From Solirubrobacterales bacterium (GTDB taxonomy: Bacteria; Actinomycetota; Thermoleophilia; Solirubrobacterales; 70-9), in the NCBI GenBank assembly GCA_019456285.1, contig VRUE01000017.1, positions 1 through 34,158 on the forward strand: 34,158 nt of DNA, in the 5' to 3' direction. Made by a program: the position numbers and the translations under genes. Shown in pieces: positions 8,190 through 11,003 of this stretch (position 1 is its first letter; every line of letters begins with the position of its first letter). The notes under the pieces are model-generated. The model made no database searches, was not told the origin of the DNA, and saw only the letters and a list, made by a program, of their open reading frames with translations.

Positions 8190-9446
8190 CTAAATCCGTG
8201 GCAGCTCCGGGAAGTCTTGGATGACGCGGGCGATCGTGCCGAGGGCCCCGTCGAGGTGCTCGCGCTCGTGGGTTGCCATCAGGCTGGTGCGGAGCAGCGC
8301 CCCGCCGGGCGGGACTGCGGGGTGGATCGCGACGTTCGTGTAGACGCCGGCGTCGAACAGGGCCTTCCAGAGCAGCACCGCCTGCCAGTCGTCACCGACC
8401 ATCACCGGCACGACGGGGGTGGTCGCGACGCCGCCGCCGGGGAGCGTCCCCGGCTCGATCACCCTCAGCCCCAGCTGCCGCAGTCCCTCGTGCAGGTACT
8501 CGGCGTTGCCGAGCAGCGCCTCGAACAGCCGCGGCCCGTCGGAGCGGATCACCCGCAGCGCCGCCAGCGCCGCGCCGACCGCGGCCGGCACCGCCGAGGC
8601 GCTGAAGATGAAGGAGCGCGAGGCGATCCGCAGGTACTCGATCACGTCGGCCGGCCCGGCGATGAAGCCGCCGCAGGAGGCGAGGCTCTTGGAGAAGGTG
8701 CCCATTCGCAGGTCGACCTCGTCCTCCAGCCCGAACAGCTCGCAGGCCCCGGCTCCGCGCGCCCCCAGCACCCCCGCCCCGTGCGCCTCGTCGACCATCA
8801 GCCGCGCCCCGTGCGCCTTGCACAGCTCGACGATCCGCGGCAGGTCGCAGACGTCGCCCTCCATCGAGAAGACCCCGTCGACGACGACCAGCACCCCGCC
8901 GCCGTCCCCCCCCGCCCGCTGCAGCATCTTCTCCAGCTTGTCCATGCGGTTGTGGCGGAAGGGGCGCAGCTTGGCGCCCGAGAGGCGGCAGCCGTCGAGG
9001 ATCGAGGCGTGGTCGCCGGAGTCGCAGATCACCGTGTCGCCCGGCTCGAGGATCGTCCCGATGCAGCCCAGGTTGGACTGGTAGCCGGTCGTGTAGACGA
9101 TCGCGTCCTCGGTCCGCATCCACTCGGCCAGCTCGCGCTCCAGATCGACGTGCAGCGGCGTCGTCCCGTTCAGCAGCCGCGACCCGGTGACGCCGGTCCC
9201 GTAGGTCTCCAGCGCCTCGCGCGCCGCGCCCTTCACCCGCTCGTCGCCGGTCAGCCCGAGGTAGTTGTTGGAGCCGAGCATGATTGTCTCGCGGCCCTCC
9301 ATCTCGACCACCGGGCCGGCCCGGGAGGTGAGCAGCCGGAAGTAGGGGAGGAGGTCGTGCTCGCGGGCGGCTTCGAGCTGATCGAGGCGGTCGTGGCTGC
9401 GGGCCTTCTCGAAGAGGTCAACCGGGGCCTTCACCGTCTCACCCAT
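8190..9446 (-). CDS. Serine-palmitoyltransferase-like alpha-oxoamine synthase (PLP enzyme)
   Basis: A 418-residue fold-type I PLP enzyme of the alpha-oxoamine synthase family, which condenses an amino acid with an acyl-CoA with loss of CO2. The PLP lysine is about residue 253 in G-T-F-S-K-S-L-A-S. Several stretches favour serine palmitoyltransferase over the AONS or KBL branches: G-S-R-L-L-N-G-T, T-T-G-Y-Q-S-N-L-G, D-H-A-S-I-L-D-G-C and R-P-F-R-H-N. These are from memory of Sphingomonas SPT. V-D-E-A-H-G-A-G is the Asp that holds the pyridine ring. A TTG start at 9473 is possible, but ATG 9446 lies exactly 7 nt after a TACACT box. It is divergent from a GNAT-like acyltransferase gene. The family is certain; SPT activity is likely but unproven. 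Confidence 0.85.
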   Translation of the reverse strand: MGETVKAPVDLFEKARSHDRLDQLEAAREHDLLPYFRLLTSRAGPVVEMEGRETIMLGSNNYLGLTGDERVKGAAREALETYGTGVTGSRLLNGTTPLHVDLERELAEWMRTEDAIVYTTGYQSNLGCIGTILEPGDTVICDSGDHASILDGCRLSGAKLRPFRHNRMDKLEKMLQRAGGDGGGVLVVVDGVFSMEGDVCDLPRIVELCKAHGARLMVDEAHGAGVLGARGAGACELFGLEDEVDLRMGTFSKSLASCGGFIAGPADVIEYLRIASRSFIFSASAVPAAVGAALAALRVIRSDGPRLFEALLGNAEYLHEGLRQLGLRVIEPGTLPGGGVATTPVVPVMVGDDWQAVLLWKALFDAGVYTNVAIHPAVPPGGALLRTSLMATHEREHLDGALGTIARVIQDFPELPRI

Positions 9447-9453
9447 GGCGCAG

Positions 9454-9463
9454 AGTGTAGGTT
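9454..9463. promoter_or_regulatory. Bidirectional promoter with overlapping -10 boxes (SPT-like / GNAT)
   Basis: The start codons of the two divergent genes are only 26 bp apart. Minus-strand TACACT (9459-9454) is 7 nt from ATG 9446. Plus-strand TAGGTT (9458-9463) is 9 nt from ATG 9473. The boxes share two base pairs (9458-9459), so both mRNAs would be leaderless or nearly so, and the two RNA polymerases should exclude each other. Confidence 0.55.
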
Positions 9464-9472
9464 CCGCTTTCA

Positions 9473-10609
9473 ATGGCTGCTGAGGTGTCGATCCGGCCCA
9501 TCCGCACGCGGCGCGAGCTGAAGCGCTTCGTCAAGGTCCCCTTCCGGCTCCACCGCGACCACCCTCAGTGGGTTGCGCCGCTGGTCTTCGAGCGGATGGA
9601 GTTCCTCAACCGTAAGAAGAACCCCTGGTTCGAGCACGGCGAGGCGGAGTTCTTCATCGCCGAGCGTGACGGCGAGCCGGTCGGTCGGATCACCGCCCAG
9701 GTGGACGAGCGCTGGGACGAGTTCCAGGGTGGGCGCGACGGGATGTTCGGCTTCTTCGAGACCGTCGACGACCGCGAGGTGGCGGAGGCGCTGCTCGGCG
9801 CCGCCGAGGGTTGGTTGCGGGACCGCGGGCGGCAGCGCGTCCTGGGGCCGATGGACTTCACGACCAACGACGAGGTCGGGATGTTGATCGAGGGGTTCGA
9901 GCTGCGGCCGATGATCCTTCAGCCCTGGCACCCCCCCTTCTACCGCGAGCTGGTCGAGGGCCTCGGCTACGCGAAGGCGATCGATCTGCTGATGTGGCAC
10001 CTCGAGTTGGGCGAGCTGGAGGAAGGCGGTAGCTTCCACGACTTCATCCACCAGGCGGCTGAGCAGGCCGAAACCGAGCACGGGGTGGTGGTTCGCGGCA
10101 TCAGCAAGCGAGACCTCGACGCCGAGCTCGCCCGGCAGATGGATGTCTACAACGAGGCGTGGGGCGACAACTGGGGCTTCATTCCCATCACCGACGCCGA
10201 ACGCCGCTCCCATATCCGCAGCATGAAGCCGATCCTCGACGAGCGGTGGATGATGGCGGCGGAAAAGGATGGCGAGGTGATCGGGGGCGCGGTCACGCTG
10301 CCTGACATCAACCAAGTGCTTGTCAGGATGGACGGGCGGATGCTGCCGTTCGGCTGGCTCAGGTTCCTGCTGGGTCGGCGGAAGATCGACCGGGTCCGCG
10401 TCTTCGCCCTCGGCGTCAAGCCGGACTACCAGCATCTCGGCGTCGCCGCAGCGCTGTACGTGCGTCATCTCGAGAACGCTTCGCCCGACGGCGTCCCCGC
10501 CGGCGAGATGGGCTGGATCCTGGAGACCAACGAGCCGATGAACAGGGCGATGGAGGGGATGGGCGGCAGCGTCGTGAAGCGCTACCGGATCTACGAGCGT
10601 TCGCTTTAA
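9473..10609 (+). CDS. Large GNAT-fold acyltransferase, candidate ceramide synthase
   Basis: A 378-residue protein of a family usually annotated as N-acetyltransferase. The N-terminus has F-V-K-V-P-F-R-L-H-R-D-H-P-Q-W-V, then N-P-W-F-E-H-G-E-A-E-F-F, then a GNAT-like stretch D-G-E-P-V-G-R-I-T-A-Q-V. A G-P-M-D-F-T-T-N-D-E segment follows. The second half has another acetyltransferase-like region, A-L-G-V-K-P-D-Y-Q-H-L-G-V-A-A-A-L, which resembles an acyl-CoA-binding loop. Bacterial ceramide synthase (bCerS) of Caulobacter is a GNAT-fold enzyme, and pairing with an SPT-like gene makes N-acylation of a sphingoid base a reasonable guess. It is cytoplasmic or membrane-peripheral; no transmembrane segment is evident. 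The exact substrate is inference. Confidence 0.75.
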   Translation: MAAEVSIRPIRTRRELKRFVKVPFRLHRDHPQWVAPLVFERMEFLNRKKNPWFEHGEAEFFIAERDGEPVGRITAQVDERWDEFQGGRDGMFGFFETVDDREVAEALLGAAEGWLRDRGRQRVLGPMDFTTNDEVGMLIEGFELRPMILQPWHPPFYRELVEGLGYAKAIDLLMWHLELGELEEGGSFHDFIHQAAEQAETEHGVVVRGISKRDLDAELARQMDVYNEAWGDNWGFIPITDAERRSHIRSMKPILDERWMMAAEKDGEVIGGAVTLPDINQVLVRMDGRMLPFGWLRFLLGRRKIDRVRVFALGVKPDYQHLGVAAALYVRHLENASPDGVPAGEMGWILETNEPMNRAMEGMGGSVVKRYRIYERSL

Positions 10610-10675: not shown

Positions 10676-10681
10676 TAGAGT
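10676..10681 (+). promoter_or_regulatory. -10 box TAGAGT of a leaderless gene
   Basis: TAGAGT is followed by exactly 7 nt and then GTG 10689, with no ribosome-binding site. This is the spacing expected if transcription starts on the start codon. Confidence 0.5.
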
Positions 10682-10688
10682 CGCGAGG

Positions 10689-11003
10689 GTGAGCAAGTTC
10701 GAGGTGGAGGGCGAGGTTCTCGCGGAGGAGGACGCCGAGCCCGGCGCCGAGCAGCCGGTCCGGGTGCTGCAGCGCTACGAGGAGCCCTCCTCGCCGGTGC
10801 TGCGCGGCGAGGTCCGCACGGCGGCGATCGCGGCCGCCGGAGGGGTGCTGGCCGGCGCCGCCACCGTGGCCGCGGTACGGGCGGTCGGCGCGGTGAGCTC
10901 CCGCAAGAGCACCGGACGGCGGCTTTCCCGCCGCCGCGAGCGCCCCGCGAACGTCGTCGCCAGCCGCTCCTTCCTGATCGACGTTCACCTGCTCGGGCGC
11001 TGA
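10689..11003 (+). CDS. Small hypothetical membrane protein
   Basis: A 104-residue protein of unknown function. An acidic head (residues 4-22, many Glu) is followed by one Ala/Gly/Val-rich helix (about 44-68: A-A-I-A-A-A-G-G-V-L-A-G-A) that could span the membrane. Then comes a very basic stretch (S-R-K-S-T-G-R-R-L-S-R-R-R-E-R) and a short hydrophobic end (S-F-L-I-D-V-H-L-L-G-R). The GTG start is chosen because it lies 7 nt after a TAGAGT box. The pattern fits a single-pass protein whose basic loop stays in the cytosol. It stands alone between the GNAT gene and the c-di-GMP gene. Confidence 0.55.
   Translation: MSKFEVEGEVLAEEDAEPGAEQPVRVLQRYEEPSSPVLRGEVRTAAIAAAGGVLAGAATVAAVRAVGAVSSRKSTGRRLSRRRERPANVVASRSFLIDVHLLGR

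What the first reader, a model, noticed from the sequence alone, without database searches (positions are those of the whole stretch)
9447..9472. Overlapping -10 boxes drive two divergent leaderless genes (SPT-like / GNAT)
Only 26 bp separate the start codons. TACACT on minus is 7 nt from its ATG, and TAGGTT on plus is 9 nt from its ATG; the two share 2 bp. There is no room for leaders, ribosome sites or separate promoters. Such a layout forces competition between the polymerases and could keep two pathway enzymes in balance.
Basis: seen in the sequence. Interest (0 to 1): 0.5.

Follow-up and report, generated by a model that had tools for sequence, protein, structure and literature searches.

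The report
Shared two-way promoter, sphingolipid gene pair
Two neighbouring bacterial genes that probably make the first two steps of a ceramide-type lipid are read in opposite directions from one tiny on-switch whose central two letters serve both genes; the layout is conserved in related bacteria and is a clean natural example of a kind of promoter already described elsewhere.

Summary
Start codons (minus ATG 9446, plus ATG 9473) are 26 bp apart. The minus box TACACT (9459-9454) and plus box TAGGTT (9458-9463) share TA 9458-9459. The nearest named relatives are Solirubrobacterales (Actinomycetota). In this family 17-26% of called genes carry TANNNT 6-10 nt before a start, so leaderless starts are routine. 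Of 23 family loci with the two genes adjacent, 11 (window included, four genera) have boxes sharing TA, all with the same ten letters, AGTGTAGGTT, while four-fold codon sites agree only 43-69%. Best reading: a leaderless bidirectional promoter with predicted starts 23 bp apart, a class known from E. coli. The "GNAT" is a full-length homolog of YghO, the E. coli ceramide synthase homolog, so the pair is probably Spt plus bCerS, consecutive ceramide steps. Added find: in the 12 adjacent loci where the TA is not shared, SPT has an extended -10 (TGN, first T lost) in 11. Over 45 SPT loci the box is TA (21) or TGN (23), never both; one has neither. Competition or balance is unproven: five of five tested E. 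coli bidirectional promoters showed no basal competition, and many relatives keep both genes without sharing. No transcription start has been mapped.

The parts
8190..9446 (-). SPT-like gene (alpha-oxoamine synthase family, 418 aa), ATG start at 9446
   Evidence: NCBIfam best serine palmitoyltransferase CFB 417 bits, below its cut-off of 640; PDB best hits are serine palmitoyltransferases, E 7e-96; 41% identity over 359 aa to E. coli BL21 Spt
9473..10609 (+). GNAT-type acyltransferase, homolog of YghO / bacterial ceramide synthase (378 aa), ATG start at 9473
   Evidence: 35% identity over 381 aa to YghO, E 5e-77; YghO finds only this gene in the own genome; Pfam GNAT matches
9454..9459 (-). 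-10 box TACACT of the SPT-like gene, 7 nt from its ATG
   Evidence: same letters in the 11 TA-sharing family gaps
9458..9463 (+). -10 box TAGGTT of the bCerS-like gene, 9 nt from its ATG
   Evidence: same letters in the 11 TA-sharing family gaps
9458..9459 (.). TA dinucleotide shared by both boxes: each strand's second-position A pairs with the other strand's first T
9447..9453 (-). spacer/initiation stretch of the SPT-like gene; predicted TSS 9446-9447
   Evidence: inferred from box position and the 7-bp rule (PMC12825309); not mapped
9464..9472 (+). spacer/initiation stretch of the bCerS-like gene; predicted TSS 9470-9473
   Evidence: inferred as above; not mapped

Best explanation
The gap is a minimal bidirectional promoter. 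RNA polymerase binds in one of two orientations at ANNNTANNNT, whose central TA gives each strand its first T and second A. With the usual 7-bp spacing the two starts fall at about 9447 (minus) and 9470 (plus), 23 bp apart, so both mRNAs would begin 0-3 nt before their start codons and be translated leaderless. The genes probably encode Spt and bacterial ceramide synthase (consecutive steps), so the promoter would co-express one pathway. Shown here: sequence, conservation, the leaderless signature of the family, homologies. Inferred: start sites, use of both directions, enzyme activities. Mutual exclusion is expected to matter only if one direction is strongly activated.
For: All 11 family gaps whose boxes share TA have the same ten letters, with variable spacers of 6-8 and 7-9 nt, while four-fold sites are 43-69% identical to the window in ten comparisons. 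TANNNT 6-10 nt before candidate 5' starts is about 34 times more frequent than before internal ATG/GTG codons (258 of 2824 vs 31 of 11717), and 17-26% of called genes in five sets carry it. First-T distances of 13 and 15 nt fall in the peak. When the genes do not share, each mostly keeps a leaderless box: SPT 11 of 12 adjacent and 22 of 22 non-adjacent; GNAT TANNNT in 53 of 56 adjacent and 25 of 36 non-adjacent loci. A box offset of 4 gives a 23-bp start distance, one of the three common distances reported for E. coli (PMC12825309, passages). The pair is YghO-like and Spt-like.
Against: No TSS data. Outside this locus the offset-4 layout is only weakly above shuffle (6 vs 2.9). The core's conservation could be each gene's own box kept separately. 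Many order relatives (outside the family) put the SPT ATG against the GNAT box with no visible SPT box, so SPT there must be expressed another way. SPT identity is below every NCBIfam cut-off.
Confidence: 0.82

Rival explanations
1. Two leaderless promoters that merely abut; the conserved core is the sum of two separately conserved boxes and the overlap has no regulatory role of its own. This is compatible with the best explanation as anatomy and differs only in regulatory meaning.
For: Both boxes mostly persist when the genes are separated; the fused core equals a common SPT half (CACT) plus a common GNAT box (TAGGTT); offset 4 is only weakly above shuffle elsewhere.
Against: Where TA is shared the SPT box has T first in 11 of 11; in adjacent loci without sharing in 0 of 12, where TGN stands in 11. 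So the shared TA seems to work for both genes.
Confidence: 0.5
2. The overlap forces polymerase competition that keeps Spt and bCerS in balance.
For: Probable consecutive pathway enzymes; polymerase footprints must overlap at this distance (recalled); core kept in 11 loci.
Against: Five of five E. coli bidirectional promoters show no basal competition (PMC12825309, passages); 12 of 23 adjacent family loci do not share the TA and in 10 of 12 g10 genomes the genes are 2.7-3.8 kb apart.
Confidence: 0.15
3. The conserved 10 bp is an operator for a regulator of lipid synthesis rather than a promoter core.
For: The six N positions of the two boxes are also the same in all 11 TA-sharing gaps.
Against: The core lies at leaderless -10 distance from both starts; 7 of its 18 family sites are elsewhere, beside what look by eye like a tRNA gene, a sugar-nucleotide dehydrogenase gene and others; family loci that do not share keep the boxes but not the whole core.
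Confidence: 0.07
4. The SPT start is TTG 9473, so there is no intergenic gap.
For: The frame is open up to TTG 9473.
Against: Gaps of 24-27 bp in the 11 loci do not keep the frame; alignments mostly start at the ATG; the TTG would overlap the plus ATG.
Confidence: 0.02

Closest known systems
Bidirectional promoters with shared -10 elements (Warman, Grainger and colleagues; PMC12825309 and PMC10268837, passages seen; the 2021 founding paper was not held)
   Same: Divergent starts 7-25 bp apart around a shared -10; by my arithmetic the 23-bp class corresponds to boxes sharing TA; in E. coli 24% lie between divergent genes, often functionally linked
   Different: Here both predicted mRNAs are leaderless, no -35 is seen, the host is a Solirubrobacterales-like actinobacterium, and the site is kept across four genera
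Leaderless genes with TANNNT about 12 bp upstream (PMC3160421, 2011, passages seen)
   Same: TANNNT with first T 13 and 15 nt before the starts, high-GC actinobacterium
   Different: Two such genes share one TA; that paper's main text holds none of 'divergent', 'bidirectional' or 'overlap' (term search)
E. coli bioA/bioB, acrA/acrR and similar divergent pairs (PMC12825309, passages)
   Same: Linked products from one bidirectional promoter
   Different: No regulator is known here; those genes were not said to be leaderless in the passages seen
E. coli BL21 / Caulobacter ceramide genes (PMC9386255, PMC11087976, PMC11324152, passages)
   Same: Spt and bCerS/YghO; in BL21 yghO is also divergent from the operon that holds spt
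   Different: In BL21 409 bp separate yghO from that operon, and acyl-AMP ligase, epimerase (CerR homolog) and ACP genes stand before spt; here the Spt-like and bCerS-like genes are directly back to back

Membership tests
Bidirectional promoter (shared -10) | -10 elements on opposite strands share bases | tested here: met
   TA 9458-9459 shared; kept in 11 of 23 adjacent family loci
Bidirectional promoter (shared -10) | Divergent TSS pair 7-25 bp apart | not testable with these tools
   Predicted 23 bp from the 7-bp rule; no TSS data
Leaderless gene | TANNNT about 12 bp upstream of the start, no Shine-Dalgarno | tested here: met
   First T at 13 and 15 nt; spacers CTGCGCC and CCGCTTTCA
Leaderless gene | mRNA 5' end at or within a few nt of the start codon | not testable with these tools
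   Needs TSS mapping
Serine palmitoyltransferase | Curated equivalog score (NCBIfam) | tested here: not met
   417 vs 640 (CFB), 385 vs 500 (BetaP), 317 vs 670 (AlphaP); CFB and BetaP are still the best-matching families. It is therefore called SPT-like
Serine palmitoyltransferase | Closest solved relatives are Spt rather than AONS or KBL | tested here: met
   Spt best E 7e-96; chains named AONS/KBL 4e-71, KBL 5e-70, AONS alone 3e-54
Bacterial ceramide synthase (bCerS / YghO / CC_1154) | Full-length homology | tested here: met
   35% over 381 aa to YghO, E 5e-77; only hit of YghO in the own genome. YghO itself is a predicted homolog of CC_1154 (PMC9386255)
Bacterial ceramide synthase (bCerS / YghO / CC_1154) | N-acylation of the Spt product | not testable with these tools
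   No assay
Bacterial ceramide pathway | CerR reductase also encoded | tested here: inconclusive
   Best own match to the E. coli CerR homolog 30% identity, E 4e-17, first of 5 matches to SDR-type genes

The most novel reading that the evidence does not exclude
The Spt promoter in this family toggles between two forms: an extended -10 of its own (TGN-VANNNT) and a box that borrows the TA of the divergent bCerS promoter. The fused core AGTGTAGGTT may have arisen about three times, each time predictably from the same two ancestral half-boxes. This would be a natural evolutionary series showing how a bidirectional promoter is built and taken apart, here for a ceramide pathway that seems hardly described in Actinomycetota.
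Probability: 0.4. Interest if true: 0.55.

Novelty: new member of a known kind. Interest (0 to 1): 0.4.

Why it matters
It gives a compact, conserved bidirectional promoter in an actinobacterial lineage known mostly from metagenomes, with relatives that act as natural mutants (shared TA, extended -10, split, partner lost). That lets the rules of -10 sharing be tested by comparison. It also points to a likely Spt/bCerS ceramide module widespread in this family (GNAT in 48 of 50 genomes). In the held library, searches for Solirubrobacterales with serine palmitoyltransferase (no paper), Conexibacter with ceramide (one title, on forest soil food webs) and Thermoleophilia with sphingolipid (four titles, none on this by title) turned up no paper on it; [quoted passage not shown]

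Tried and rejected
Rejected: a TTG start for SPT; classical -35/-10 promoters (none found); strong genome-wide enrichment of the TA-sharing layout (6 outside this locus vs 2.9 expected); a clear CerR (only distant SDR hits). Led nowhere: where the SPT promoter lies in relatives outside the family; the direction of evolution between shared and separate boxes (searches suggest about 3 gains, or 1 gain with about 4 losses, counted by eye on FastTree trees printed without support values). My first pair test included AT-rich contigs that look foreign to the bin; one search repeated it without 12 of 41 own stretches (5 of 31-43% G+C, 7 with no G or C; the two looked at, L083 and L089, are all N). 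The profile was made before that exclusion.

Dropped or partial rows: one search was given 22 family genomes lacking an adjacent SPT; G045, G051 and G053, with partial GNAT matches, were left out. The 45-locus SPT count covers 23 adjacent plus 22 non-adjacent family loci and no locus outside the family. Searches used 18 of the 20 stretches; L220 and L221, outside the family, were left out, and several of those 18 were chosen because they hold this locus. In 'compact' was defined by the ten letters themselves, so '11 of 11' there is by construction; one search repeated the search with the letters left open. In one search, 36 of the 77 named loci were not already held by an 80-bp key; none had the exact core, and several of the 36 begin inside the gene.

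Full report
What is there. The window reads CAT-GGCGCAGAGTGTAGGTTCCGCTTTCA-ATG at 9444-9475. The minus gene starts at ATG 9446, the plus gene at ATG 9473. TACACT (minus, 9459-9454) is 7 nt from its start and TAGGTT (plus, 9458-9463) is 9 nt from its start; they share TA 9458-9459. No -35-like hexamer is seen.

Whose genome. The nearest named relatives are Solirubrobacterales, Thermoleophilia and Actinobacteria MAGs; the window's own record is not named. The own assembly is 2.11 Mb in 146 contigs.

Leaderless habit. In 384 kb of the own genome and 400 kb of a family member, TANNNT is concentrated with its first T 12-16 nt before ATG. After removing own stretches of low G+C or without G and C, five sets (1.48 Mb in all) show TANNNT 6-10 nt before a 5' ATG/GTG in 64 of 266, 55 of 323, 32 of 149, 42 of 160 and 62 of 261 called genes. 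That is 258 of 2824 candidate starts against 31 of 11717 internal control codons. With first base A, C or G the ratio to control is only 2.4, 0.9 and 1.1. Gene calls are a simple frame-composition method, so these are estimates.

Conservation. The GNAT gene is found in 40 of 41 relatives, 48 of 50 family genomes and 62 of 199 class genomes. SPT lies next to it, divergent, in 56 of 92 loci examined. Among the 23 adjacent loci of the family, ANNNTANNNT at leaderless distance from both starts occurs in 11 (window included), from genera g1, g5, g8 and g11, always with the letters AGTGTAGGTT; the other 12 have no such overlap. In the 11, starts are 24-27 bp apart, spacers vary in sequence and length, and four-fold sites of the two genes agree only 43-69% with the window. 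The pattern core-N5-11-RTG has 18 sites in 14 of 50 family genomes, 11 at this locus; the backwards control has 4.

What happens when the boxes part. In the 12 adjacent loci without sharing, the SPT box is TGN-VANNNT in 11 and absent in one (L012); none has T first. In 22 further genomes without SPT adjacent, 12 have TGN and 10 have TA. In total the 45 SPT boxes are 23 TGN, 21 TA and 1 neither, and none shows both (lists). Genome-wide, TGN-VANNNT at leaderless distance is about fivefold enriched (30 of 2824 vs 25 of 11717). In TA-sharing gaps the GNAT box occupies the place where TGN would stand (ACC in 11 of 11). So the shared TA seems to do for SPT what TGN does elsewhere; this is inference from pattern, and related loci are not independent. 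The GNAT gene has TANNNT at leaderless distance in 53 of 56 adjacent and 25 of 36 non-adjacent loci. Six loci of a sister group have ACCTAGACT before SPT and no GNAT found beside it, which looks like a remnant of the fused box. In one of them (L225) the next gene resembles the window's 10689-11003 ORF, as read by eye.

Mechanism. Hexamers offset by 4 predict starts 23 bp apart (offset + 19 with a 7-bp -10 to start distance; my arithmetic). Warman and colleagues report 18 bp as commonest and 10 and 23 bp as common in E. coli, and bidirectional promoters have been defined by divergent starts 7-25 bp apart (PMC12825309 and PMC10268837, passages). The window fits the 23-bp class. The same work found no basal competition at five of five promoters tested, and repression of the other side when one was substantially activated. 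Balance by competition is therefore possible but unsupported here.

The enzymes. The plus protein matches E. coli BL21 YghO over its full length (35% over 381 aa, E 5e-77). YghO is listed with CC_1154 as the acyl-CoA N-acyltransferase of dihydroceramide synthesis (PMC9386255, passages). The minus protein is SPT-like: its best NCBIfam and PDB relatives are serine palmitoyltransferases, but it stays below curated cut-offs, and a 42% paralog is in the genome. CerR is not settled. In BL21, yghO is also divergent from the operon holding spt, at 409 bp.

Limits. No start site has been measured, no activity tested, and trees were read without support values. Outside the family, of 33 adjacent loci, 12 have the SPT CAT one base from the GNAT TANNNT, with 14-16 bp between starts, and two Conexibacter records have 13 bp; no SPT box was found in loci of this form. 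Elsewhere in the family the TA-sharing layout is only weakly above shuffle (6 vs 2.9), while divergent leaderless pairs at other offsets are well above it (23 vs 3.45); so the locus, rather than the layout in general, carries the evidence.

Noticed in passing
L113-L140 (12 of 33 adjacent loci outside the family) and L280, L283 (Conexibacter): The SPT start codon stands one base from the GNAT -10 box (CAT-R-TANNNT), leaving 13-16 bp between start codons; no SPT box is visible in these loci, so SPT may be promoted from inside the GNAT gene or otherwise.
   Followed up: partly
L171, L178, L179: The same AGTGTAGGTT core stands between what looks like a minus-strand tRNA gene and a leaderless-type gene starting MAEVLPF (DUF1015-like, by eye): a possible tRNA/mRNA bidirectional promoter.
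   Followed up: no
L180 (own genome C82:9381-9399) and L181 (same-genus G002): A second place with the same core, CAT 6 nt on one side and GTG on the other, alike in the own genome and a relative of the genus; genes not identified.
   Followed up: no
L164, L165: The same core stands 8 nt from the CAT of a minus gene that looks like a sugar-nucleotide dehydrogenase (by eye).
   Followed up: no
window 10676-10691: The small ORF after the GNAT gene (GTG 10689) also has a leaderless-type box, TAGAGT 7 nt before its start.
   Followed up: no
L031, L038, L042, L050, L080 (own assembly contigs C1, C8, C12, C20, C26): Contigs of 31-43% G+C in a genome of about 71%: probably foreign contigs in the bin. 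Seven further short contigs (L083-L089) have no G or C; the two looked at are all N.
   Followed up: partly
L222-L228 with L105-L111: A sister group has SPT 86-89% identical to the window's but a GNAT only 47-50% identical and placed elsewhere, as if the original partner was lost and another copy serves.
   Followed up: partly
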